Assembly: GCA_029260715.1 (NCBI GenBank)
Contig: JAJDCS010000016.1
Span: 1-64,000, forward strand
Direction of reading: 5' to 3'
Length of the DNA stretch: 64,000 bases
Source of the DNA: Phycisphaeraceae bacterium
GTDB lineage: Bacteria > Planctomycetota > Phycisphaerae > Phycisphaerales > Phycisphaeraceae
Both the position numbers and the translations under genes were made by a program. The notes under the pieces are model-generated. The model was given only the letters and a program-made list of their open reading frames with translations. It searched no databases and was not told where the DNA came from. Below, piece by piece: positions 8,997 to 32,632 of the stretch (positions are counted from its first letter, which is position 1; each line of letters begins with the position of its first letter).

Positions 8997-11521
8997 ACGA
9001 CCTAACACACGAGCTCGAGCGGATCGCGGCGGTGCCGGTGCTGCTGGTGGCGTCGGACTACGACGGGACGCTGGCGCCGATCGTGTCCGACCCGGCGCAG
9101 GCCAAGCCGCTACGCGAGGCGGCGGTGGCGCTGCGCATGCTGGCGACACTGCCGCAGACGCACGTGGCGATCATCTCCGGCCGGGCGCTACGCGACTTGG
9201 CGGACCTAACCAACCCGCCCGAAGACGTGCACCTGGTCGGCAGCCACGGCAGCGAGTTCGACCTGGACTTCGCCACGTCGCTATCACCCGAAACATCCAA
9301 GCTGCGCGACCGTGTCTTGGAAGAGCTATCACAGATCGCCACCAAAGGCACAGGGTTTTCCGTCGAGCAGAAACCCGCGAGCATCGCGTTTCACTACCGC
9401 AACGCCCCAGACGACGAAGCCGACCGTGCGGTTAAAGCGGTCATGAGCGGCCCAGCCGCGTTGAAAGGCGTGTTTACCAAATACGGGAAGAAGGTGGTCG
9501 AGCTTGGCGTGGTGTCCACGGACAAGGGGCAGGCTTTGGAGGCGATGCGACACCGGCTAGGCGCGTCGGCGGTGGTCTTTTTAGGGGACGACAAGACCGA
9601 CGAAGACGCGTTCGCCACGCTCACCGGGCCTGACATCGCCGTAAAAGTCGGCCCAGGCGAAACACGGGCGCCGTTCCGCGTGGATGGGCCCGAGGATGTG
9701 GCGAAGGTGTTGGCTAAATTGGGCGAGCTGCGCACCGAATGGCTCAAGGGCTCCGAGGCGGTGGCGATCGAGCAGCACGCGATGCTGTCGGACCAGCGCA
9801 CGGTCGCCCTGGTCACGCCCAACGCTTCGGTCACGTGGCTGTGTCTGCCTCGGATCGACTCGCCCGCGCTGTTCGCGGACCTGCTCGGTGGGCCCAGCGC
9901 CGGGCATTTCAGCATCAAAGCAGCAGACGGGTCGCTGCCGATCGAGCAGCGGTACACCGGCGATTCGTTGGTGCTCCAGACGCGGTGGCAAGGGTTTACC
10001 ACGACAGACTTTTTAGACTGCTCAGGCGGGCGCCCGTCGCAACGCGCGGGGCGAGCGGACCTGTTCCGCATCCTGGAGGGCGGCGGGCGGGTCGTAGTGG
10101 ACTTCGCGCCACGCCTGGATTTCGGACGCGTGCCCACGCGGCTGATCGTCCGCGACGGCGGCATCGAGGTCGAAGACACGCCCGACCCGATCGTGCTGCG
10201 GTCGCCGGGCGTGAAGTGGCGGCTGGTCGAAGAAGGCAATCACCACACGGCCAGGGCCGAGATCGATCTTGATCAAGAGCCCGTGGTGCTGCACCTGTGC
10301 CACGGCAGCGGGAGCATGCGCGACGGGGTGGCGTCGGCCAAGGACAAGCGGTTGTTGACCGAGGTCTACTGGTCGTCTTGGGCAGACGGGCTTGCGATCC
10401 CGAACGTAGAGCCGGAGTTGGTGCGCCGCAGCGCGTTGGTGCTCAAGGGCCTGTGCTACGGCCCGACGGGCGCGGTGTCGGCGGCGGGCACGACAAGCCT
10501 GCCCGAGCATATCGGGGGCGTGCGCAACTGGGACTACCGCTTCTGCTGGCTGCGGGACGGCGCGATGGCAGCGGCGGCGCTGGTAAAGCTTGGCAGCACA
10601 GCCGAGGCGATGCACTTCCTCGACTGGGTCCTGGGCGTGGTGGACAACTGCGACTCGCCCGAGCGGCTCCGCCCGCTGTACACGGTGACGGGCGGGTCGG
10701 CGGGGCCGGAGGCGGAACTGGGACAGTTGGCGGGGTACCGCGGCAGCCGGCCGGTGCGCGTGGGCAACAGCGCCGCGGCGCAGGTGCAACTGGACGTGTT
10801 CGGGCCGATCGTCGATCTCGTGGCGCTACTGCTCGATCACGACGCGCCGGTGTCATCGAACCACTGGCGGCTGGTGGAGGCCATGGTCCAGGCTGTGCGG
10901 CAACGCTGGCACGAGCCCGACCACGGGATCTGGGAGATCCGCCGACCACGCCGCCACCACGTACACTCAAAGGTGATGTGCTGGGTCACCGTGGACCGGG
11001 CAATCAAGATCTCAGGCCACTTGCTCGGCAGAGACCGTGAGGATTGGAAACGGCTACGCGACGAGATCGCCAAAGACGTAATCGAACACGGATTCAAGCA
11101 GGCGGGCAACGCGTTCACCGCGGCTTACGACGACACAGACCTGGACGCGGCGGCGTTGTACGTCGGGCTAACCGGCTTGCTCGACCCGCAAGACCCACGC
11201 TACCTCGGCACGCTCGACGCGGTTGAAAAGGCATTGCTACTGGGCCCGACGGTGTACCGGTACCGATCAGACGACGGCCTGCCGGGGTACGAAGGCGGGT
11301 TCCATATCTGCGCGTCGTGGCTGGTCGAAGCATACGCACAGGTCGGGAGAGTCGCTGAAGCGAAGACCCTGTTTAACCAAATTGTGTCCCTGGCGGGGCC
11401 CACGGGCATGATGTCAGAGCAGTACGGGCCAAAAACACGGCGGGCATTGGGGAATGTACCCCAGGCGTACTCGCACATCGGCGTCATCGAAAACGCATTG
11501 ACCCTCGAACGGCTAGGGTGA
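8993..11521 (+). CDS. Fused trehalose-6-phosphate phosphatase and GH15 glucoamylase/trehalase-like hydrolase
   Basis: An 842-residue two-domain enzyme. Residues about 1-245 are a HAD-type OtsB phosphatase with the nucleophile motif SDYDGTLAPI (Asp22, Asp24) and the metal motif GDDKTDED. From about residue 255 the chain is a complete GH15 (alpha/alpha)6 barrel: WLCLPRIDSPALF at its start, NWDYRFCWLRDGA in the middle, and EGGFHICASWLVEAY near the end where the catalytic Glu lies. Bacterial GH15 members include glucoamylases and, in mycobacteria, true trehalases. The protein could therefore make trehalose and also cleave it or a related glucan. It overlaps otsA by four bases. Domain calls are firm; the GH15 substrate is inferred. 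Confidence 0.92.
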   Translation: MNDLTHELERIAAVPVLLVASDYDGTLAPIVSDPAQAKPLREAAVALRMLATLPQTHVAIISGRALRDLADLTNPPEDVHLVGSHGSEFDLDFATSLSPETSKLRDRVLEELSQIATKGTGFSVEQKPASIAFHYRNAPDDEADRAVKAVMSGPAALKGVFTKYGKKVVELGVVSTDKGQALEAMRHRLGASAVVFLGDDKTDEDAFATLTGPDIAVKVGPGETRAPFRVDGPEDVAKVLAKLGELRTEWLKGSEAVAIEQHAMLSDQRTVALVTPNASVTWLCLPRIDSPALFADLLGGPSAGHFSIKAADGSLPIEQRYTGDSLVLQTRWQGFTTTDFLDCSGGRPSQRAGRADLFRILEGGGRVVVDFAPRLDFGRVPTRLIVRDGGIEVEDTPDPIVLRSPGVKWRLVEEGNHHTARAEIDLDQEPVVLHLCHGSGSMRDGVASAKDKRLLTEVYWSSWADGLAIPNVEPELVRRSALVLKGLCYGPTGAVSAAGTTSLPEHIGGVRNWDYRFCWLRDGAMAAAALVKLGSTAEAMHFLDWVLGVVDNCDSPERLRPLYTVTGGSAGPEAELGQLAGYRGSRPVRVGNSAAAQVQLDVFGPIVDLVALLLDHDAPVSSNHWRLVEAMVQAVRQRWHEPDHGIWEIRRPRRHHVHSKVMCWVTVDRAIKISGHLLGRDREDWKRLRDEIAKDVIEHGFKQAGNAFTAAYDDTDLDAAALYVGLTGLLDPQDPRYLGTLDAVEKALLLGPTVYRYRSDDGLPGYEGGFHICASWLVEAYAQVGRVAEAKTLFNQIVSLAGPTGMMSEQYGPKTRRALGNVPQAYSHIGVIENALTLERLG

Positions 11522-11678
11522 CCACGCGCCGGCCGAATAAGCGCAAGCAAAACCGGAAGCGTCGTCACGCTTAGCACGCGGCGCTTCGATCCGGTTCAGC
11601 GACAACCACACCACGCACGCGGCTTTTGCCTAGCGGCTGCTCGGCTCACTGATTAAAGATGGCTTAGCCCTGTGGTAA

Positions 11679-11960
11679 TTACCAGCGGCCGCCACCGCCG
11701 CCGCCGCCCGAGCGCGGGGCCTTGGGGCGAGCCTCGTTGACCGTCAGCGTGCGTCCGCCGACTTCGGTCCCGTTGACGGCCTCAATGGCGGCGCGGGCCT
11801 CGTTGTCGTCACTCATGGTGACAAAGGCAAACCCGCGCGACCGGCCGGTCTCCCGGTCGCTGATCACCGCGACTTCATCGACATTGCCGTGTTGCCCAAA
11901 CAGGTCACGCAGTTCATCCTCGCTGCTCTGGAAGCTGAGGTTTCCGACATAGATCTTCAT
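11679..11960 (-). CDS. RRM-type RNA-binding protein
   Basis: A small (93 aa) single-RRM protein. RNP2 (IYVGNLSF) opens the chain and RNP1 reads RGFAFVTM. The C-terminus is a Gly-rich tail, as in cyanobacterial Rbp and other bacterial glycine-rich RRM proteins often linked to cold or stress. Such proteins bind single-stranded RNA. The ATG at 11960 is chosen because it puts the RRM at residue 1; a longer reading to 11987 adds nine unconserved residues. The gene is monocistronic. An imperfect inverted repeat with AACCGG/CCGGTT ends near 11551-11596 lies downstream and might help end transcription. Confidence 0.93.
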   Translation of the reverse strand: MKIYVGNLSFQSSEDELRDLFGQHGNVDEVAVISDRETGRSRGFAFVTMSDDNEARAAIEAVNGTEVGGRTLTVNEARPKAPRSGGGGGGGRW

Positions 11961-12207
11961 TCGAACTCTCCAACCGGTGAAGCCCACGAGCCGTTTGGTC
12001 TGTGCAAGGGCGTCACCTAAAAACGTGTAAGACCGCCTACGCCGGCTGGCTCATCTTCAGAGCGTCATTATACAGGCAAAACGGTGAAGTCAAACATCAC
12101 CCGCCGCGTGGGGGTTTAAGCCCACATATTGCCCACTTGTTTTTGGGGTGGCTTGGCCCCGATAGACAGGCGCTCGTGGCGCCACGGCAGGACGCTCCTC
12201 GCGGGGT

Positions 12208-13266
12208 TCAGTTCTTGCTATACCGCCACGCGCCTAGCTGCTGAGTGGTCAGGTCGCGGTATTGGCCATCGTGGCTGGTGGCGAGGCTCAGCAACTCGCT
12301 GGCGGTTTCACCGTCGACCAATACAGCATCGAATCGCGTCAGAGAGGCCCTTTTCAACAGGCTGCGGATGGCGACGACCTGCTCGGCGGACGGCTTGTCG
12401 GCGATGATCAGGATCAATTGCTCGGGCCTGACGGCTATGGCGAGTTGCACGGCGTCTTCAATGTTGGCCGTGCCCGTGGCTAGGATGCCGTTGAGGGTGT
12501 CGCGCATGGTGTCGCGGGGCAGGGCCGACAGGGGCATGAGTTGATCGGGGCAGACCGCCTCGCTGTCGTAACGGGCGAACACAAATTGAATGCCCACCGC
12601 GTCGGTCTGAAAATCCGTGCCCGCGAGAACCGCGTCTTTAACAAAACCCAGCCAACGCCGGCTAGCGAAGGAGGCGTCGATCACCACAACGGTGCGCGCG
12701 CTAAGCGGGATGCCCAGAACATTGGGCCGACTCATCGTAAATGGGTTGGCCTTGGGGTCGTACTCAAAATTGACCTCAATCGCTGGGGCTTGCCGTTGAA
12801 GGTCGCTCACCTGCGCTTGGTGGCGCACAAACAGACTCATCACAAACACGCTGATCCCGATCACCGCCGCGATCCCCGCCGCCACCGCGAACCGGACGGT
12901 AAGGCGCTGCTGGGTTGTCAGCCTGGCTGCCGCGGGTTGAGCCGTCTGGGGGTGGGTGGGTATGGCGGCGGACCTGACCCGGCGAGACGCGCGCGGAGGC
13001 GGCTTGGTCCTTGGCTGCAGGGTCGGCAGCGGCTGGCCCGGCGATGCTGTGTGATTCACGTTCCGAGTCGGGGTCGCGTCTTCAATCGGGGCTGGCTGGC
13101 CGGGGCGCTCAGGGCGGGCCTGGGTGGGGCGCGTCTTTAACGCGGGGTCGTCGGGCACGGTCATGAGCTGCCCGCACACCGAGCATCGGCAAACGCCGCC
13201 GGCAAACCCGGTATCCAACTCCAGAACCTGCTCGCAACTGGGACAGGTCAGTTCCAGCAGTGCCAT
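12208..13266 (-). CDS. Zinc-ribbon, membrane-anchored, vWA-like protein
   Basis: A 352-residue protein of uncertain function. Residues 8-31 hold a Cys-rich ribbon (CPSC, then CRCSVC). A Pro/Thr/Arg-rich low-complexity segment follows, then one transmembrane helix (about residues 128-147). The C-terminal half resembles a von Willebrand A fold: a hydrophobic strand ending in IDASFAS where a MIDAS DxSxS would lie, a Thr-containing ATGTANIEDA and a later strand ending IIADKPS. The MIDAS is therefore partly degenerate. Such zinc-ribbon plus membrane plus vWA layouts are common in planctomycetes. It starts 20 bases after the sppA-like gene and is probably cotranscribed with it. Confidence 0.7.
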   Translation of the reverse strand: MALLELTCPSCEQVLELDTGFAGGVCRCSVCGQLMTVPDDPALKTRPTQARPERPGQPAPIEDATPTRNVNHTASPGQPLPTLQPRTKPPPRASRRVRSAAIPTHPQTAQPAAARLTTQQRLTVRFAVAAGIAAVIGISVFVMSLFVRHQAQVSDLQRQAPAIEVNFEYDPKANPFTMSRPNVLGIPLSARTVVVIDASFASRRWLGFVKDAVLAGTDFQTDAVGIQFVFARYDSEAVCPDQLMPLSALPRDTMRDTLNGILATGTANIEDAVQLAIAVRPEQLILIIADKPSAEQVVAIRSLLKRASLTRFDAVLVDGETASELLSLATSHDGQYRDLTTQQLGAWRYSKN

Positions 13267-20148: not shown

Positions 20149-22782
20149 TCACCCCGCGTCGGCCAGCAAGGAATAGTGGCCGTCGAGCGGCTGGGACCTA
20201 TCCTTGCGGGACTGCGCCTCGTCTGATAGCTCCGCGGCGAGTTGCTCAAAACGTGTTTCGAGCTTGAAGAAAGCTTCGATGACGGCAGGGTCGAACTGCG
20301 TGCCGGCCAACAGCCGGATGATCGACACGGCCTTCTCGTGGGGGTATGGGTCTTTGTACGGCCGGGCGGTGGTCAGCGCGTCGTAGACATCCGCCAGCCC
20401 GGTGATACGCGCCGCCAACGGGATCTGCTCGCCCTTGATCTTGTGGGGGTACCCGCCGCCGTTGTACCACTCGTGGTGACCCTCGATCACTTCCAGGGCC
20501 ATCTTCAGGAACCGGACGTGGGGGTTCTGCTCGATGACCGAGCGGATCGTCTGGGCGCCCATCTCGACGTGGGACCGCATGATGGACATCTCGTCGTCGG
20601 TGAGTTTGCCGGGCTTGAGCAGGATGCGGTCGGGGATGGCGACTTTGCCGATGTCGTGCAAAGGCACGGACCGCTGAAGGTCGCTGATGTAGTCGTCGTC
20701 GATCTGCTCGCGGTACTGCTCTTTCGTCGCCAACTCCTTGGCGAGCAAAACCGCGAACGAGGTGACGCGGTCGAGGTGCTTGCCCGTGTCGGTATCGCGG
20801 TGTTCGGCCAGGCGGGCCAGGGCCACCACGATCGAGTTGTAGGCGTCGTCGCGGGCGCGGCGGCTCTCGATGCCGTCGATCGCCGAGGCGGCGATATTGC
20901 AGATCAGGTCGATGTACTCCAGGTCCAGCGGCTGGAAGGCCCTGCCGTCGTAACGCTCGGTGATATTCAACACGCCGACCACACGCTCCGTCGTCCGCAA
21001 CGCCGTGGAAACCAGCGGGGTGCTTACAAAAAACTGGGCGTCGTATTTCTCGTTGTTCTCTTTGGTCTCTTGCGCATCGTTGATCAAGACCGGCTTCCTG
21101 GACAGGTAGACACGCCCGGCGATCTTGCCGCCGATCGGGATGCGGACGTTGCGCGCGACCTTCTTTTCAATCCCGATGGAGCGGACAACCTCCAACTCGG
21201 TGCCGGTCTGGTCGGGGAGCATAATCGAGATACGGCGACACGCGGTCAGCTCCGCAGCCGCGGAGATAATCTTATCCAGAGCCGAGTTCAGGTCGCTCGT
21301 CACCGAGATGCTGCGCGACAGGTCCAGCAAGATCCCCAGCGCCCTGGCCTGGACGCCACGCACCTCGTTGCTCTGGATCAGCTCGGCCTTGTTGCGCTGC
21401 AGCCGAGCCATCGAACGCACGCGGTAGAGAAACGCCTTACGATCCAGCGGCTTGGTGATGTACTCGTCGGCGTGAACATCAAGCCCGGCTTGTATGTCTT
21501 GCTCGGACGACCGACCGCTAATGATGATGAGGGGGATGTCCTTGGTCACCGGGTTGGCTTTGAGCTGGCGTGAACACTCCAAGCCGTCCATGCGCGGCAT
21601 CTCGATGTCCATAAGGATGATGTCGGGGCGTTCCTGCTTGATTTTTTCGAGCGCATCGACGCCGTCAACCGCCTCGACGACCGTGTAGCCGTCCTGGTCC
21701 AGGAGCTTGCCGCAAAGCAAGCGGATGGCTTGATCGTCGTCCACGACCAAAACCTTCGTCGGGCTTTGGGACATCTCACCGGAGACCCACTGCTGGAGTT
21801 GTTTCTCATCCAAGGCCTCGTCTGTTTGTGCGTGGCTGGCCAGGCACACACGGTTGCGCCCCTCGCGCTTGGCGCGGTACAGCGCGTCGTCCGCCTGGCG
21901 GAGCATCGCGTCGAACGACTCGGTGTTCGGCCCCACCTCGGCGACGCCGATGCTGACCGTCACCGATAGCTCCAGGTCGTAGTGGTAAACTTTGTTCGAT
22001 TCAATGGCCAAGCGGACCCGCTCCCCACAGCTCACCGCGTCCTCGGCGGTGGAACCGGGGCAGAGGATTAGGAACTCCTCCCCGCCCATGCGACAGACGG
22101 TCTCGCCTTGACGGGCGGAGTCTTGGAGTTGCCTCGCGGTGCCGCGTAAGACCTTGTCGCCAACGGCGTGCCCGTAGATATCGTTGCAACGCTTGAAATG
22201 GTCGATGTCGATCAGCAGACACGAAAGCGGCGTACCCTGGCGGCTGGCCACGCTCCACAGCTCTTCGATGCGTCGCATGGCTTCGCGGCGGTTGGCAAGA
22301 CGCGTCAGGTCGTCGGTGATCGCGACCTGCTGGAGCCTGTTGTTGAGGACCATCAACTCGGCGTTGGCTTTGTAGATCGCCATGCGGTCCTGGGCCAACT
22401 CGTCCTCGAGCTTGAGCAAACGCTCGCCCGCTTGAAGCCGGGCGATAAGCTGCTGCTCATTAAAAGGCTTGCCGAGAAAATCATCAACGCCCGCCTCGAA
22501 CGCCTCTAAAATCTTCGGCCCTTCCTCGTAAGCACTCAGCGCCACGATGTAGACACAACCGAATGCTTCGGTCGATCGAATCGCCCTGCACAAGTCCAGG
22601 CCGTCCATCTCCGGCATCGCCAGATCAGTAATGATGATCTTGGGGCATTTCTGATTGAATAGACGCAGCGCATCGGCGCCGGTGTTGGCGGAGCAAGCCT
22701 CGTACCCAGCTTTGTGGAGAAACTGGGTGGCCAGCGAAATAATCGCCGGGTCGTCGTCTATGACCAGTACTGTTTTAGCCAT
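20149..22782 (-). CDS. REC-GGDEF-REC-GAF-HD-GYP c-di-GMP turnover protein
   Basis: An 877-residue regulator. REC1 (about 2-120) keeps Asp53 in TDLAMPEMDG. The GGDEF domain (about 155-315) has an intact GGEEF at 233-237; five residues before it is RQGE, one change from the RxxD inhibitory site. REC2 (about 343-460) keeps Asp392 in MDIEMPRMDG. A GAF domain (about 495-640) and a complete HD-GYP domain follow, with HDIGK and HHEWYNGGGYP. One polypeptide could thus both make and break c-di-GMP under two receivers. No cognate kinase is adjacent. The start ATG opens a perfect receiver N-terminus. Confidence 0.94.
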   Translation of the reverse strand: MAKTVLVIDDDPAIISLATQFLHKAGYEACSANTGADALRLFNQKCPKIIITDLAMPEMDGLDLCRAIRSTEAFGCVYIVALSAYEEGPKILEAFEAGVDDFLGKPFNEQQLIARLQAGERLLKLEDELAQDRMAIYKANAELMVLNNRLQQVAITDDLTRLANRREAMRRIEELWSVASRQGTPLSCLLIDIDHFKRCNDIYGHAVGDKVLRGTARQLQDSARQGETVCRMGGEEFLILCPGSTAEDAVSCGERVRLAIESNKVYHYDLELSVTVSIGVAEVGPNTESFDAMLRQADDALYRAKREGRNRVCLASHAQTDEALDEKQLQQWVSGEMSQSPTKVLVVDDDQAIRLLCGKLLDQDGYTVVEAVDGVDALEKIKQERPDIILMDIEMPRMDGLECSRQLKANPVTKDIPLIIISGRSSEQDIQAGLDVHADEYITKPLDRKAFLYRVRSMARLQRNKAELIQSNEVRGVQARALGILLDLSRSISVTSDLNSALDKIISAAAELTACRRISIMLPDQTGTELEVVRSIGIEKKVARNVRIPIGGKIAGRVYLSRKPVLINDAQETKENNEKYDAQFFVSTPLVSTALRTTERVVGVLNITERYDGRAFQPLDLEYIDLICNIAASAIDGIESRRARDDAYNSIVVALARLAEHRDTDTGKHLDRVTSFAVLLAKELATKEQYREQIDDDYISDLQRSVPLHDIGKVAIPDRILLKPGKLTDDEMSIMRSHVEMGAQTIRSVIEQNPHVRFLKMALEVIEGHHEWYNGGGYPHKIKGEQIPLAARITGLADVYDALTTARPYKDPYPHEKAVSIIRLLAGTQFDPAVIEAFFKLETRFEQLAAELSDEAQSRKDRSQPLDGHYSLLADAG

Positions 22783-26005: not shown

Positions 26006-27256
26006 TTATGCGCAACCGCACCCAGCCGCCACGGCGCGGATGACATCGGCGGCGAGCACGCCCGTGTCCGTCGATACCGTCACCCATTGATTAGAGCCCG
26101 CTTCACCCGATGGGGCCGCATCCGCATGAGGCGGCTCATCGACCAGCGTGATGACCGATCCGGTGTAGCCCTGGGTTCGCAAGGACCGTATCAGCGCGCC
26201 CGGATCGCTGTGGAGCGTCTGTGTGCCCAGCAAGGCCGCATGGAAGCGGCAGGCCGAAGTGGTGCCAAACAGATCGGCTAAAGGCTCGCCGCTGCCGCTT
26301 AGCTGCACACTGCCCCCGGCGCTTTTGAGGATGACCGACAGCAACAGCCTCATATCCGGGCGGTCTTCGATCAGCAACACATTCACCCCACGCAGCCGCC
26401 CATTCTGTTCACCCGCCTGGTGTCGCCGTTTCAAAGACAGGTCTGACAAGCCGCCCCGATCATCGCCAAGCATGAGCTGCGGCAGGCTGTCGACAAAAGC
26501 CGATTCCGCCACAACCCCTGTGGGGACTTTGAGCGTAAAAGTCGTGCCTTTGCCCGGCTGACTCCGCACCGCCAGCGTCCCGCCTAGCAACTCGGTCAAT
26601 TGTTTTGCAATCGTCAGGCCCAGGCCCGTGCCGCCGCGTGAATACGTCACCGACTCTTCGGCTTGCACGAAGGGGTCGAAAATACGCTCTAGGGATTGAC
26701 CGCTGATCCCGATGCCCGTATCGGCGACGCCGATGCTCAACCAGCCGACGCCGTCAGCCTCAGCGGGCGCTGACGCGATGGCTATCCGCACACCCCCTTC
26801 CCGGGTGAACTTAATGGCGTTGTCCACAAGATTGAGCAACACCTGCCGGAGCCTGATCGCGTCGGTGTGGATGGTTTTAGGGATCGGCCCGTCGCAAACC
26901 GCTTCGAGTTTTAACCGCTTGCGTATAGCCAAGGGCTGTAGCGTGGCGACGATGTCCGTCACCGTCTGCCCGGGGTCACACTCCGCCGACTTGATCGGCA
27001 GCTTACCGTCCTCGATCCTCCACAGGTCCAGGGCGTTGGTGATCAGCGACAGCAGGTGCTGGCTGTTTTCGCGGATTGTCTTGACCAGGTAGCCCGTCTG
27101 CTTCCCGCCGTCGCCGGACGCTTCGAGCAAGTCCGTGCAGGCGTGGATGGTCGACACGAGCGTGCGCAGGTCGTGGGCGATATGGGTTAAAAAATCGTCC
27201 TTCATGCTTGTGCAAATATATATGTACGGGTCGCGACGCGTATGGGTGTTCACCAC
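26006..27256 (-). CDS. Soluble histidine kinase with degenerate receiver
   Basis: A kinase with no sensor domain. HisKA begins almost at once with THIAHDLRTLV (His28 from the GTG start); the usual Pro of HELRTP is Leu. The ATPase domain is intact (VDNAIKF, DTGIGI, GGTGLGL). The C-terminal receiver-like domain starts normally (VNVLLIEDRPDMR) but the phospho-accepting Asp position reads ALLGTQTL, with Gly instead of Asp, and the switch Lys is not visible. It is thus a pseudo-receiver. The start could be GTG 27256 or ATG 27205. It follows the PhcQ-like gene after about 60 bases and probably belongs to the same transcript. Confidence 0.85.
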   Translation of the reverse strand: MVNTHTRRDPYIYICTSMKDDFLTHIAHDLRTLVSTIHACTDLLEASGDGGKQTGYLVKTIRENSQHLLSLITNALDLWRIEDGKLPIKSAECDPGQTVTDIVATLQPLAIRKRLKLEAVCDGPIPKTIHTDAIRLRQVLLNLVDNAIKFTREGGVRIAIASAPAEADGVGWLSIGVADTGIGISGQSLERIFDPFVQAEESVTYSRGGTGLGLTIAKQLTELLGGTLAVRSQPGKGTTFTLKVPTGVVAESAFVDSLPQLMLGDDRGGLSDLSLKRRHQAGEQNGRLRGVNVLLIEDRPDMRLLLSVILKSAGGSVQLSGSGEPLADLFGTTSACRFHAALLGTQTLHSDPGALIRSLRTQGYTGSVITLVDEPPHADAAPSGEAGSNQWVTVSTDTGVLAADVIRAVAAGCGCA

Positions 27257-27317
27257 ACGGCGATACCCGCGGCTGAGTGCCTCTCCTGCTTCCGCAACAG
27301 CCCGACACCGCTGCCGG

Positions 27318-28559
27318 CTATTCTTCTAATTCCCCCCACGCTTCCAGGTTGGTGAAAATCCTGTCGAGCCAATCCGATTCCAACGCCGGCTGCTTCGTGG
27401 CCTCGGGGTCAAGCGGCAGCAACAGCTCAAAGCCCGGCCCCTTCGGCGGCGACGGGTGGACCAGCAGTTGCCCGCCGTGGTGGTGGGCCATGAAAAACGC
27501 CGCCAACACGTCGAGGCTTACCTGACGCGCGTCCTTTCCCGACGATTGAACCGCGGAGAACAGGGTCGAGATCTGTTGGGCGTTCCAGGCTGAGCCTTCA
27601 TACGCAAACCGCAGGCGGATCCCGGGGGTGCCGTAGACCGAAGGCTCGGGCTTTATCTCTATCTTCACCGGCTTGCCTTCCCCGGCCAGCGCACCGACAC
27701 GCTGCACCAAAACACCAAGCAGCCGTTTGATCATGTTCGGGTCGGCCTTGACCGGAGAGAGACCCGGGGCAACCTCTTGTTCGACGGTGATACCGAGTTC
27801 CTTCAGGTCCGCCGAGATGGTGTCGAGTTCCTGGCCCAGCACCTCCTCAACCGAGACAGGCCCGTTGAAGCGGTAATCCGACTCCACAGTCGCGTGCAGC
27901 ACCGAGTCCACCGCGTTGAGCAGGCGTTGGCTTTCTTGCTGGGCCAGCGTCCACAGATCGCCCCAATCAACCTCCGCGTCGTCCAGCCGATCGCCGGCGC
28001 TAACGGGCACGAAATCAAAAAACGCCTTGAGCGCCGCCATCGAGTTTCGCACACGGCACGCCAGGCTGGCAGCCAGGACCGTGAAGCTGCGCACACGGTC
28101 GAGGATAATCATCCGCTGAAGCACGCTGAGCTTCTCTCGCAACAGCACGTCGCGTTCACGCTGGACAAGGAAAAACTCCATCGCCCGCATCAAAATACCC
28201 TTGAGGTCGCGGACGTCCCACGGCTTGGTCACGTACTGGTGCACGCCCCCGGAGTTGACCGACTCGATGGCGTCCTCAAGGTCTGAGTAGGCCGTGGTGA
28301 TAATGCGCACGACCCCGGGCCACTGCTTGCGAACCTTATTTAGCAGATCCACACCGGTCTGCCCGGGCATGCGCTGGTCGGTCAACAGCACGCCTATCTC
28401 GTCGCCCTTCTCTTCCAATAGCTTCATCGCCGCCTCGGCGCCCGACGCGGTCAGGATGTTGAAATCATTGGTGTAGGCCTTGGTGAAATACTTCAGGGCC
28501 TGGGGCTCGTCGTCGACGTATAGGATCGAGAACTGTTTATGGTCGTAGCCTCTGTGCAC
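27318..28559 (-). CDS. PhcQ-like response regulator with inactive kinase-like output
   Basis: A 413-residue protein. The receiver (about 10-130) has Asp61 in LLTDQRMPG, Thr and Lys (YVTKPWD). A signature RAMEFFLVQRERDVLL linker leads to a kinase-like region where the expected phospho-His site reads LAASLACRVRNSMAAL, with no His. The ATPase-like end lacks clear N and G boxes. This layout, and the neighbours, resemble PhcQ of the Ralstonia phcBSRQ quorum-sensing operon, as I recall that family. It starts four bases after the fused PhcS/R-like gene. The receiver assignment is certain; the PhcQ label is a family-level inference. Confidence 0.85.
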   Translation of the reverse strand: MHRGYDHKQFSILYVDDEPQALKYFTKAYTNDFNILTASGAEAAMKLLEEKGDEIGVLLTDQRMPGQTGVDLLNKVRKQWPGVVRIITTAYSDLEDAIESVNSGGVHQYVTKPWDVRDLKGILMRAMEFFLVQRERDVLLREKLSVLQRMIILDRVRSFTVLAASLACRVRNSMAALKAFFDFVPVSAGDRLDDAEVDWGDLWTLAQQESQRLLNAVDSVLHATVESDYRFNGPVSVEEVLGQELDTISADLKELGITVEQEVAPGLSPVKADPNMIKRLLGVLVQRVGALAGEGKPVKIEIKPEPSVYGTPGIRLRFAYEGSAWNAQQISTLFSAVQSSGKDARQVSLDVLAAFFMAHHHGGQLLVHPSPPKGPGFELLLPLDPEATKQPALESDWLDRIFTNLEAWGELEE

Positions 28560-28562
28560 GGG

Positions 28563-31178
28563 TCATGTCTCCTGATTGTCTGCCAGAGGCAGCTCTAAAG
28601 TGATTTCGGTCCACTGGTCGGGCTCGCTGCGCACGGTGATCCGTCCGCCGTGATTCTTTACAATGGTGTGGCAGATGCTCAACCCCAACCCCATGCCCTC
28701 GCCCACGTCTTGCGTGGTGTAAAACGGGTCGAAGACACGCGGCAAAACCTCGGGGGCGATCCCCACGCCGTTGTCCCAGACGCGAACAATAAGCATGCTC
28801 CCGTTGCGTTCTGAGCGGACCTTTATCTGCGGCTGGCGCTTCGGGCCGACGGACCCGACCGCGCGCAGGGCATTGGTCAATAGGTTCAAGACCACTTGGC
28901 TGATGTGGGTCTTCGAGCCGCAGATCGGGCTATCGGGCTCAAAGTCTTGCTCGATCTGCTGGCCGTTGCGCATGTGGGCGGTGAACCGCATCGCGGTGTC
29001 CACCACTTCCACGATCTCAAACTTCTCACGCTTGTCCGCCTGCTGGGGGTAGGCGAACGTGCGGAGGTCGGTGATGATGTTCTGGATCCGTTTCATCCCG
29101 TCTTCAATATCGTGGAGCGTTTCTTTGAGGTCGTTGTCGTCTGAAGCCTGTGCGGCTTGATCGAGCACCTGGACCGCGGTGAGCGTGAAGTTGAGCGGGT
29201 TGTTGATCTCGTGCAGCAGGCCCGCGGCGAGGCTGCCCAGGGCGTTGAGCTTCTCGCTTTGGATCAGTTGGCCCTCGGCTTCTCTCAACCGCCTCAACGC
29301 CTCCTCCAACTCAACGTTCCGCTGCTTGACGTCGTGCTGCAACGAAGCGGTCCGCAGGATATTGCGTATCCGGGTCTTGACTTCCACGCTGCTGAACGGC
29401 TTGGTCAAGAAATCGCTGGCGCCGCGGTCCAGGGCCTCAACCTTCGTCCCCTCATCGGCGCGCGCCGTGAGCAACACGACCTTGATATCTCTTAGCTTCT
29501 CGTCCTTCTGTATGGCCAGGCAAACGTCCAAGCCGTCCATGCCCGGCAGCATCAAGTCCAGCAAGAGCAAGTCGGGCTGGTGTTGCTTAGTCATCTCCAG
29601 CCCGGTTATCCCGTCGGCCGCTTGCAAGACGCGGTACTCGTCTGAAAGGATCGATACCAGGAACCGCCTCATGTCCGGCTCGTCGTCAACGATCAGCACA
29701 CGGAACCGCCCCTGCCCCACTTCCAGCGGGTCGGCCTGGGACACCCCGCCGTCCACCGGGGCCGAACGGTCGGCCGCACGGAACGTGATGGCAAAGGGGT
29801 CGCTGTCGTCACCGGCGGCTTGGGTTTCCGAAGCTTCCACCGCCGCCGCGTCGGAGCCTCGATCCAGAGGCAATTCAACCGTAAACACCGTGCCCTCGCC
29901 CACACGGCTGCGCACGGCGAGGGTGCCGCCGTGTTCCTCGATCAACTCTTTGGTCAACGCCAGCCCAAGCCCCACGCCCTGGTACTTCCGCGTCGAAGAC
30001 CCGTCCGCCTGCCTGAACCGGTCGAACACGTGCGGCAGCTCTTTCTCGGGTATCCCGATGCCGGTGTCCCGGACCTCGATGCGCGCCATCTCGCCGGCCT
30101 CTTCCCAGCCGACCACCACCACACCGCCGGGGTCGGTGAACTTGATCGCGTTGGTCAAGAGGTTGATCATGATCTTTTCTAGACGGGAACGATCGCCGCT
30201 GATAATTGGGTCGCCCACGCCCTGGGCGCGCAGATCAATTTTTTTGGTGGTGGTTAAGTAGCGGAGCGATTCGACAATGCCCGAGACAAACGTGCCCGCG
30301 AGGATCGGCTTGCGGTCGATCCTCAGCTTGCCCTCCTCTAGCCTGTTGATCTCAAGCATGTCGTTGATCAGCTTCAGCAGGCGCAGGCCGTTGTTCTTCA
30401 CAATCGCCAGGGACTGGCCGATGTCCTCGGGGATCGGCGGGTCGCGGTGCAGGAGCATCTCGATCGGCGAGAGGATCAGCGTCAGCGGCGTGCGGAGCTC
30501 GTGGTTGACGTTCGCGAAAAACTCCGACTTCAAGCGGTCCAACTCGGCGAGCTTGTCGTAAGACCGCGCAAGCTCCTTGTTCCCCAGGTCCAGTTCGTGG
30601 CGCAAGCGGAAATCGTTGAACCTGGCGCGCGCGGTGAAGTAGCTGGAGGTCGAGCAGATGATCCCGGTCAGGACCAGAAAGTAAGTGTTGTTGTACAGCG
30701 TTTTCCAATCAACGGTCGTCGCGTAGTGCAGGAAACACGCGGCCAGGTACATGCCCAGCGTCGCAACGCAGACTAAAACCGTCTCTCGGAAAGTCCACGG
30801 CAGCAAAACCGCAACCGCGAGGATTACCAGATTCAAGCCGGCATAGTACGGAGAGACCGCACCCTCCGATGCGTAGATCATCCAACTGATGGCCATATTC
30901 ACCAGCAGCACCCAGGTCAGCCCCAACACGTGGACTTGCCGACGCCCCAACTGCGTAAAGTGCAGGGCGAAGACACCAAGCACCAGCAGGTCGACCAAGA
31001 ACCTCACCCGGAAAAAATCCCAGAACAAGGACGGGTAGACCAGCCCATCGAGCGAGCTGCCAGCCGGCACCAAGACCAGCACCAGCACACAGCCAACCTT
31101 TGAATAGCGCAGCCTCAGCTGGCGATCGGCTTCAAGGTATTCTTGAAGGAGGTCTTTATGATCGGTTCCCGGCTGCAA
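28563..31178 (-). CDS. PhcS-PhcR-like fused multi-domain histidine kinase
   Basis: An 871-residue signal-transduction protein. Residues about 28-185 hold roughly six to seven membrane helices with little extracellular loop, as in sensors of lipophilic signals (PhcS, CqsS-type). HisKA1 carries His226 (NVNHELRTPL) and is followed by an ATPase (TNAIKF, GVGLGLALTK). A receiver with Asp541 (LLLDLMLPGMDG) follows, then a coiled coil and a second kinase core with His656 (LLHEINNPLN) and a complete ATPase. In Ralstonia these would be two genes, phcS and phcR. The TTG start, with GGAAGG upstream, lies 64 bases inside the methyltransferase gene. Confidence 0.9.
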   Translation of the reverse strand: MQPGTDHKDLLQEYLEADRQLRLRYSKVGCVLVLVLVPAGSSLDGLVYPSLFWDFFRVRFLVDLLVLGVFALHFTQLGRRQVHVLGLTWVLLVNMAISWMIYASEGAVSPYYAGLNLVILAVAVLLPWTFRETVLVCVATLGMYLAACFLHYATTVDWKTLYNNTYFLVLTGIICSTSSYFTARARFNDFRLRHELDLGNKELARSYDKLAELDRLKSEFFANVNHELRTPLTLILSPIEMLLHRDPPIPEDIGQSLAIVKNNGLRLLKLINDMLEINRLEEGKLRIDRKPILAGTFVSGIVESLRYLTTTKKIDLRAQGVGDPIISGDRSRLEKIMINLLTNAIKFTDPGGVVVVGWEEAGEMARIEVRDTGIGIPEKELPHVFDRFRQADGSSTRKYQGVGLGLALTKELIEEHGGTLAVRSRVGEGTVFTVELPLDRGSDAAAVEASETQAAGDDSDPFAITFRAADRSAPVDGGVSQADPLEVGQGRFRVLIVDDEPDMRRFLVSILSDEYRVLQAADGITGLEMTKQHQPDLLLLDLMLPGMDGLDVCLAIQKDEKLRDIKVVLLTARADEGTKVEALDRGASDFLTKPFSSVEVKTRIRNILRTASLQHDVKQRNVELEEALRRLREAEGQLIQSEKLNALGSLAAGLLHEINNPLNFTLTAVQVLDQAAQASDDNDLKETLHDIEDGMKRIQNIITDLRTFAYPQQADKREKFEIVEVVDTAMRFTAHMRNGQQIEQDFEPDSPICGSKTHISQVVLNLLTNALRAVGSVGPKRQPQIKVRSERNGSMLIVRVWDNGVGIAPEVLPRVFDPFYTTQDVGEGMGLGLSICHTIVKNHGGRITVRSEPDQWTEITLELPLADNQET

Positions 31179-32632
31179 GGATTACCTTCCGGCTTGCGGA
31201 TTTCTAAGAAAACGTTTGTGCCTGTGGGCTCGGCCATCACGCACTGCTGACCCAAGTCTGAGATCAAGCCCGCCATGTCCGACTCGCTACGCAGCAGCAG
31301 GCTCCAGTCTTGCAGGTGATCCATGATCCCCCGGGCGGGGTTGTTGGCGTGTACGTTGGTGACGACCACAAGACCCCCGGGCACCGTCCACTCGTAAAAC
31401 AAGCGTACGAGCCGCTTGCACACCCGGTCTGAAAGATAGTCGAATAAACCTGCGCAGTACACATAATCATAGGATGGAGTCGCTTCTATTTTCCTGGCGG
31501 ACGCCTCTTTCAGCAGGTGGTGGATCGAGCGGTGTATATATCGGATCTTCACCTTGCTGCGGCTTTCACGCATGGACTGTTCAATTTCGTTCGAGGCGTA
31601 CCGGATCGTTTCTTCATTAAAATCCAGGAGTTCCATCTCGGCGTGGTCCGACACGGCGTCTTTGACAAAACGCTGGACCTCAACAGCCGGCCCACAACCC
31701 ACGTTCATCACGCGGCAGGGGCGGTTGTATTTCTGCACACGCTTGGTCTCCGACCTCAGGTATTCCAGGAGATTATCGATGCGGTTGCGGTGGCCCTGGG
31801 CGGTGCCGGTGCGGAGGAACACGGCGTTGACCAGCCTGGCGTAAGTGTTGCTGCCCTCCCAAGGGTCGCGCAGGATCATGTTGACCATCTCGTAGTCACC
31901 CGCGTAACCCAGGGGCTTGGTGAACGTGCGGTGTAAGAAAGGCGAGCACAAGATCAGAGGGTGCAGCTCCCGCCGGACAAACGCCTTGTGCAGCGGCGTC
32001 TCTTCGACTGACACCTTCTGGGCTTCTTGGTCAAACTCATTGAAAATCTCGTCGAGCTTCGGCCCGACCTTCGTGTCGACGTCAGCCACAAACGCCTTGA
32101 CAAAATCGATGGTATTTTGATTGTCTTTGATCCCCGCCACCGCTTCGCCGTGCTCAAGCCAGCGGCTCAACTCCTCTAAAAAGTTGTGCATCTTACTCAC
32201 GCACAATTCGTACGAAGGGCGGATGTGCTGGTGACTGGTCTCCCAGTCCTGAATAAACCTGGCGACCTCTTCACGGAGTTCGGGGCCCGGCGACAGGTCG
32301 ATTAAGTCCGACCATGGGTCGACCAGCGTCACCGAGACGATCAACAGAAGCCCCGTGCTGACCAAATTGCTCACCACCGCGCGGCCGGTGTAGATCGTGC
32401 GGTCGCCTCGGCGCACGTGGAAATCGGTCAAAACCTCGCTTAACTGCACGATGGAGTAGGGGTTGTAGACCTCAAAAACAGCCGCATTTCGGCTCAGGCG
32501 CATCAGCGTCCCCCTGGCCTGGATACCCTGACTGTTTTGAAAAACCACTAAACTGTCGGTTGCTAGAACTGCCTCTTTCACAGACGTCTCCAGATCACTG
32601 TTTAGATCGCTACGGCTAAGCCGTGCAACCAC
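31115..32632 (-). CDS. PhcB-like SAM-dependent methyltransferase with N-terminal barrel domain
   Basis: A 505-residue protein. The N-terminal third (about 25-115) is beta-rich and PilZ-like in outline, but lacks RxxxR and DxSxxG, so it may not bind c-di-GMP. A helical middle contains KPLGYAGDYEMV. The C-terminal class I methyltransferase (about 300-485) has motif I in NVGCGPAVEV, an acidic LLDFNEE and YVYCAGLFDYLSDRVCKR, which I associate with PhcB, the methyltransferase that makes 3-hydroxy-fatty-acid methyl ester autoinducers in Ralstonia. It is first of four same-strand signalling genes. Start is a GTG after GGGGCAGG. The enzyme class is firm, the fatty-acid substrate is inferred from family and context. 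Confidence 0.85.
   Translation of the reverse strand: MVARLSRSDLNSDLETSVKEAVLATDSLVVFQNSQGIQARGTLMRLSRNAAVFEVYNPYSIVQLSEVLTDFHVRRGDRTIYTGRAVVSNLVSTGLLLIVSVTLVDPWSDLIDLSPGPELREEVARFIQDWETSHQHIRPSYELCVSKMHNFLEELSRWLEHGEAVAGIKDNQNTIDFVKAFVADVDTKVGPKLDEIFNEFDQEAQKVSVEETPLHKAFVRRELHPLILCSPFLHRTFTKPLGYAGDYEMVNMILRDPWEGSNTYARLVNAVFLRTGTAQGHRNRIDNLLEYLRSETKRVQKYNRPCRVMNVGCGPAVEVQRFVKDAVSDHAEMELLDFNEETIRYASNEIEQSMRESRSKVKIRYIHRSIHHLLKEASARKIEATPSYDYVYCAGLFDYLSDRVCKRLVRLFYEWTVPGGLVVVTNVHANNPARGIMDHLQDWSLLLRSESDMAGLISDLGQQCVMAEPTGTNVFLEIRKPEGNPCSREPIIKTSFKNTLKPIAS

What the first reader, a model, noticed from the sequence alone, without database searches (positions are those of the whole stretch)
26006..32632. 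PhcBSRQ-like fatty-acid-ester quorum-sensing cluster in a planctomycete
On one strand, tightly packed, lie a class I methyltransferase with PhcB-like motifs (KPLGYAGDYEMV and YVYCAGLFDYLSDRVCKR), a multi-helix hybrid kinase, a response regulator with the RAMEFFLVQRERD linker, and a further kinase. The order methyltransferase, membrane kinase, receiver-kinase, receiver-pseudokinase is that of phcB-phcS-phcR-phcQ of Ralstonia, which makes and senses 3-hydroxy-fatty-acid methyl esters. I know of no such system described in Planctomycetota. Gene families and order are seen or family knowledge; signal and role are inference. No PhcA-like LysR regulator is visible nearby, so the output would differ.
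Basis: partly seen in the sequence, partly recalled or inferred. Interest (0 to 1): 0.8.

Follow-up and report, generated by a model that had tools for sequence, protein, structure and literature searches.

The report
Planctomycete relative of Phc quorum sensing
A planctomycete carries a gene cluster that is a true relative of the fatty-acid-ester quorum-sensing operon known from Ralstonia and Cupriavidus, with a larger membrane sensor kinase, no PhcR gene and no evident PhcA, and the same core cluster occurs in several other bacterial phyla.

Summary
Four co-directional genes lie at 32632..26006 (- strand), and three of them form a genuine phc-type cluster. The methyltransferase is 45% identical over its full length to Cupriavidus PhcB. 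The 871-aa membrane kinase is PhcS: its sensor domain is 39% identical over 189 aligned residues and its second transmitter 41%, but it carries an extra transmitter plus receiver between them. No PhcR lies in the cluster. The fourth gene is an ordinary hybrid-kinase relative with a degenerate receiver; it was not found in any related cluster examined, so it is not PhcQ. In 80 of 80 related loci from many phyla, chosen only by the methyltransferase, a PhcS-type sensor kinase follows directly, and a PhcQ-type receiver follows in 61 of 65 that have room. The genome has one clear LysR gene, beside gltB, so the output probably differs from PhcA. Best mechanism: the PhcB homologue makes a fatty-acid methyl ester, the hybrid PhcS senses it, and PhcQ relays. 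Signal, phosphotransfer and output are inferred. This is a new variant of a known kind; the papers I could search describe nothing like it outside Betaproteobacteria.

The parts
31115..32632 (-). phcB-like gene: class I SAM methyltransferase (505 aa) with a conserved N-terminal beta domain (about residues 27-103) carrying the YNPYSIVQLSEVL motif, then helices, then a Rossmann methyltransferase domain
   Evidence: 45% identity to Cupriavidus PhcB over 458 aa, E=5e-142; tree inside the family that holds Burkholderiales PhcB, next to other planctomycetes; single copy in the genome; AlphaFold pLDDT 87; methyltransferase fold, VIA Z 19.9 to 3ocj, rmsd 3.3 over 259 residues
28563..31178 (-). phcS-like gene: membrane hybrid kinase (871 aa) with membrane sensor 1-200, HisKA/HATPase A (His226), receiver (Asp541), and HisKA/HATPase B (His656, the equivalent of Cupriavidus PhcS His233)
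   Evidence: sensor 39% identical to Cupriavidus PhcS over 189 aligned residues; transmitter B 41%; Cupriavidus PhcS finds this gene first in the whole genome, 204 and 181 bits against 86 for the next
27318..28559 (-). phcQ-like gene: receiver (Asp61, Lys112), long helix, and a C-terminal HATPase-derived pseudokinase (413 aa)
   Evidence: best hit of Cupriavidus PhcQ in the genome, 132 bits against 57 for the next; groups with PhcQ-type receivers rather than the Burkholderiales PhcR clade; C-terminal part matches the HATPase profile by hhalign, prob 99.2; Foldseek best match LvrB of Leptospira
26006..27256 (-). extra soluble histidine kinase with a degenerate receiver lacking the acceptor Asp; not part of the conserved cluster
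   Evidence: 36-40% identical to many hybrid kinases of the phylum, including several in its own genome; no counterpart found beside the relatives' clusters

Best explanation
This is a phc-type autoinducer cluster made of phcB, an enlarged phcS and phcQ, plus a locally recruited kinase. The PhcB homologue methylates a fatty acyl (probably 3-hydroxyacyl) substrate with SAM to make a diffusible ester. The membrane sensor of the enlarged PhcS detects the ester. Phosphate then passes between transmitter A, its receiver and transmitter B, and on to the receiver of PhcQ. PhcQ, a receiver fused to a kinase-derived pseudo-ATPase, passes the state on by protein binding rather than DNA binding, to an unknown effector that is probably not PhcA. 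Shown by computation: orthology of the three genes, their linkage, intact catalytic and acceptor residues, absence of a clustered PhcR, and scarcity of LysR genes. Inferred: substrate, signal, phosphotransfer route and output.
For: PhcB match is full length and the gene is single copy. Cupriavidus PhcS and PhcQ each find these genes first in the genome by a wide margin. The membrane sensor is 39% identical over 189 aligned residues, far above shuffled sequence. PhcB R22 and PhcQ R154, whose mutation lowers signal production in Ralstonia (PMC6989110), appear to correspond to conserved arginines R40 and R155 here. The PhcS phospho-acceptor H230 (PMC11960443) corresponds to His656 by way of Cupriavidus His233. 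In 80 loci chosen by the methyltransferase alone, 79 have a PhcS-type sensor kinase starting -147 to +89 nt from the methyltransferase stop, and the last (L072) has one whose predicted start merely lies further upstream. A PhcQ-type receiver follows in 61 of 65 loci with room. Cupriavidus strains carry a complete Phc system and one appears to make a form of 3-OH PAME (PMC2842291).
Against: No activity has been measured. PhcB substrate residues are not known, so the ester cannot be predicted. PhcR and PhcA, the regulators that complete the classical system, are not found in the cluster, and the sole clear LysR gene lies beside gltB. The R22 and R154 correspondences rest on Cupriavidus numbering; the Ralstonia sequences were not aligned here, and Cupriavidus PhcQ has its arginine at 157.
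Confidence: 0.72

Rival explanations
1. The cluster is homologous to phcBSQ, but the methyltransferase makes a different small ester or modifies a lipid, and the kinase senses that, without population-density signalling (an internal lipid or envelope-state circuit).
For: Sister methyltransferases carry PilZ or cNMP-binding domains in place of the PhcB N-terminal domain, so the wider family is not confined to quorum sensing. Divergence from PhcB is about 55%, and PhcA is apparently missing.
Against: Sensor and synthase are conserved together as a pair across phyla, as expected when the kinase reads the enzyme's product.
Confidence: 0.2
2. An unrelated methyltransferase happens to sit next to common two-component genes, and the Phc likeness is superficial.
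For: Two-component genes are abundant in this genome, with 61 receiver matches.
Against: Full-length PhcB match, sensor-domain match, best hits in the genome and conserved order in 80 loci. Nine more distant methyltransferase loci of the phylum show no PhcS-type sensor.
Confidence: 0.02
3. A decaying acquired cluster: the patchy distribution reflects horizontal gain, and the system is non-functional here.
For: Only 4 of 301 sampled genomes of the order have a full-length homologue.
Against: All frames are open and the phospho-acceptor and ATP-binding residues of PhcS, and the PhcQ receiver residues, are intact. The methyltransferase groups with other planctomycetes, including a member of its own family.
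Confidence: 0.06

Closest known systems
phcBSRQ operon of Ralstonia/Cupriavidus (3-OH PAME / 3-OH MAME quorum sensing)
   Same: PhcB methyltransferase first, PhcS membrane sensor kinase directly after, PhcQ receiver last; tight co-directional packing; PhcB matched full length; sensor and acceptor transmitter of PhcS conserved.
   Different: PhcS carries an additional transmitter and receiver between sensor and main transmitter; no PhcR in the cluster; PhcQ has an HATPase-like C-terminus longer than in Burkholderiales; no clear PhcA; an extra kinase is added.
Four-gene clusters of Gammaproteobacteria (e.g. Salinisphaera hydrothermalis L075, Nitrococcus MAG L065)
   Same: Same methyltransferase and the same hybrid PhcS architecture, with PhcQ.
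   Different: They also carry a PhcR-type receiver-kinase between phcS and phcQ.
LvrA/LvrB hybrid kinase and hybrid response regulator of Leptospira
   Same: Hybrid HK-REC-HK kinase (LvrA profile is the best NCBIfam hit of gene 2, below cut-off) and a receiver-kinase response regulator (LvrB is the best Foldseek match of gene 3).
   Different: Scores lie far below family cut-offs; the PhcS-type sensor and the synthase gene are what mark the present cluster.

Membership tests
phcBSRQ quorum-sensing system | PhcB-type SAM methyltransferase homologous over full length | tested here: met
   45% over 458 aa to Cupriavidus PhcB; same family in the tree
phcBSRQ quorum-sensing system | PhcS-type membrane sensor plus transmitter with the acceptor His, directly after phcB | tested here: met
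   sensor 39% over 189 aligned residues, His656 aligned to Cupriavidus PhcS His233, first hit in the genome
phcBSRQ quorum-sensing system | PhcQ receiver protein without DNA-binding domain | tested here: met
   gene 3 is the best hit of Cupriavidus PhcQ in the genome and groups with PhcQ types
phcBSRQ quorum-sensing system | PhcR (receiver plus kinase) in the operon | tested here: not met
   Cupriavidus PhcR finds only the receiver of gene 3 first; its full-length match is a hybrid kinase elsewhere in the genome (G000:C7)
phcBSRQ quorum-sensing system | PhcA LysR-type output regulator | tested here: inconclusive
   one LysR gene over cut-off in the genome, adjacent to gltB; PhcA itself was not available as a query
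phcBSRQ quorum-sensing system | produces a 3-hydroxy fatty acid methyl ester and responds to it at high cell density | not testable with these tools
   needs biochemistry and mass spectrometry
   gene 4 has kinase domains first and a degenerate C-terminal receiver; its relatives are generic hybrid kinases

The most novel reading that the evidence does not exclude
A fatty-acid-ester autoinducer system is spread across Planctomycetota, Verrucomicrobiota, Kiritimatiellota, Myxococcota, Acidobacteriota and Proteobacteria. Its widespread form is a three-gene phcB-phcS(hybrid)-phcQ relay without PhcR or PhcA, and the Ralstonia form is a derived one in which PhcS lost a transmitter and receiver and a LysR output was attached.
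Probability: 0.5. Interest if true: 0.78.

Novelty: new variant of a known kind. Interest (0 to 1): 0.62.

Why it matters
Phc quorum sensing is known from a few Betaproteobacteria, mostly a plant pathogen. A shared synthase-sensor-PhcQ core across distant phyla would make it a broadly spread signalling language. It would also offer non-pathogen models to study how PhcS and PhcQ work, and give planctomycetes a concrete, testable cell-to-cell signal.

Tried and rejected
Gene 3 as PhcR: rejected, because the receiver tree and best-hit test put it with PhcQ and PhcR matches only its receiver. Gene 4 as PhcQ: rejected, because of its domain order and generic relatives. Gene 2 as a fusion of PhcS and PhcR: considered. 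Its REC-HK half does match PhcR (27% over 399 aa, 100 bits), but PhcS matches the last transmitter far better (41%, 207 bits) and the first transmitter is extra, so 'PhcS with an inserted transmitter and receiver' fits better. N-terminal domain of PhcB as a PilZ domain: sister methyltransferases L044 (over the cut-off) and L047 (just under it) match PF07238, but PilZ was not among the 25 most frequent families for the 47 PhcB-type members, nor in the window protein's own list, and the profile comparison was insignificant; left open. The structural search covered mainly the methyltransferase domain, so the N-terminal domain's fold is untested. The promoter/terminator scan found no more than chance.

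Full report
Observation. The window lies in contig C8 of a 3.3-Mb planctomycete genome (96.5% complete, 2.3% contamination). Four genes on the - strand, 32632..26006, overlap or lie 3 and 61 nt apart. Pfam domains are: methyltransferase; HisKA-HATPase-REC-HisKA-HATPase; REC; HisKA-HATPase.

Gene 1 is PhcB. The genome has no second copy. The window protein is 45% identical to that PhcB over 458 residues, E=5e-142. Published work reports 56-75% identity between C. necator JMP134 and Ralstonia Phc proteins, and says a Cupriavidus strain appears to make a form of 3-OH PAME (PMC2842291). In the tree all 47 PhcB-type proteins are separated from more distant methyltransferases. The window protein groups with planctomycetes (support 92), including a member of its own family, and Burkholderiales PhcB nests among Proteobacteria. 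Across 47 members the N-terminal EVYNPYSIVQLSEVL stretch is among the most conserved. R22 of PhcB, whose change to Cys lowers signal production in Ralstonia (PMC6989110), is R22 in Cupriavidus and aligns with R40 here; the Ralstonia sequence itself was not aligned.

Gene 2 is PhcS with an insertion. Cupriavidus PhcS is sensor plus one transmitter. Its sensor aligns with residues 16-204 of gene 2 with a single one-residue gap and 74 of 189 identities (score 302; the highest of 200 shuffles is 65). Its transmitter aligns best with the second transmitter of gene 2 (41%); Cupriavidus PhcS His233 aligns with His656, and in Ralstonia pseudosolanacearum H230 is the phospho-acceptor (PMC11960443). A further transmitter (His226) and receiver (Asp541) lie between. 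Searching the whole genome with Cupriavidus PhcS gives this gene twice (204 and 181 bits) before any other (86 bits).

Gene 3 is PhcQ. Cupriavidus PhcQ finds it first in the genome (132 bits against 57), whereas PhcR matches only its receiver. The receiver tree places it with PhcQ-type genes and separates the Burkholderiales PhcR clade (many branches are weakly supported). Its C-terminus is homologous to HATPase domains (hhalign probability 99.2) but Pfam does not recognise it, so it is read as a pseudokinase. The model's best structural match is the Leptospira hybrid response regulator LvrB. R155 here aligns with Cupriavidus R157 and probably with Ralstonia R154, whose mutation mimics a phcQ deletion (PMC6989110). 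In Ralstonia PhcQ binds and stabilises PhcA (PMC13320629).

Gene 4 is not part of the core. Its relatives are common hybrid kinases, several in the same genome. Its receiver lacks the acceptor aspartate (sequence). No counterpart was found in related clusters. Its 61-nt spacing suggests co-transcription here, so a local role is possible.

Neighbourhood. The 80 loci were chosen by the methyltransferase alone. In 79 a kinase with the PhcS-type sensor starts -147 to +89 nt from the methyltransferase stop (median -3); the remaining one (L072) has the kinase with an upstream-extended predicted start. Of 65 loci with room, 61 have a PhcQ-type receiver downstream and 19 a receiver-kinase of the PhcR kind. 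The full hybrid form is commonest (at least 45 loci). The short PhcS form appears in 19, mostly Burkholderiales, but also in Rhodopirellula baltica, Roseiconus and two MAGs labelled Rickettsiales; on a 47-row tree this needs 3 changes (rows with truncated kinases were counted as hybrid). Nine more distant methyltransferase loci show no such sensor.

Distribution. About 9 of 294 genomes sampled in the phylum and 4 of 301 in the order have a full-length homologue, so it is patchy. Named hits include Planctomycetota, Verrucomicrobiota, Kiritimatiellota, Myxococcota, Acidobacteriota, Binatota and Proteobacteria; MAG labels may be unreliable.

Output. The genome has one LysR gene over cut-off, next to gltB. 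PhcA was not available as a query, so its absence is likely rather than shown.

Literature. No held paper combines PhcB with Planctomycetes and quorum sensing, and the two that hold PhcB and Verrucomicrobia are unrelated. Subscription papers and automatic database annotation were not searchable. From my own knowledge, automatic pipelines label such proteins '3-hydroxypalmitic acid methyl ester biosynthesis protein', so single genes may already bear that name.

Verdict. The Phc homology and linkage are well supported. The Phc-like mechanism is likely but untested.

Noticed in passing
L044:7596-9161, L046:8153-9733, L047:9450-10976: Distant planctomycete methyltransferases with a PilZ-type N-terminal domain (Pfam match shown for L044 and L047) lie near kinases bearing a diverged PhcS-type sensor (E 1e-24 to 1e-28), perhaps a second, c-di-GMP-linked branch of the system.
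   Followed up: partly
L039:8102-9556, L040:8610-10055: Sister methyltransferases carry an N-terminal cyclic-nucleotide-binding domain (PF00027) instead of the PhcB N-terminal domain.
   Followed up: partly
L051:6281-9386: Candidatus Anammoximicrobium MAG has two phcB-type methyltransferase genes in tandem before the kinase.
   Followed up: no
L140:382-7990 (G000:C7): The best full-length match to PhcR in the genome is a REC-HK-REC hybrid kinase at the start of a cluster with a cellulose-synthase-like glycosyltransferase; a possible exopolysaccharide link, untested.
   Followed up: partly
window 20149-22782 (-): A single protein carries two receivers, GGDEF, GAF and HD-GYP domains (c-di-GMP synthesis and breakdown in one chain), a few kb downstream of the cluster.
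   Followed up: no
L037:4848-6008 and 11125-12213: One planctomycete has two phcQ-like genes flanking its phcB-phcS pair.
   Followed up: no
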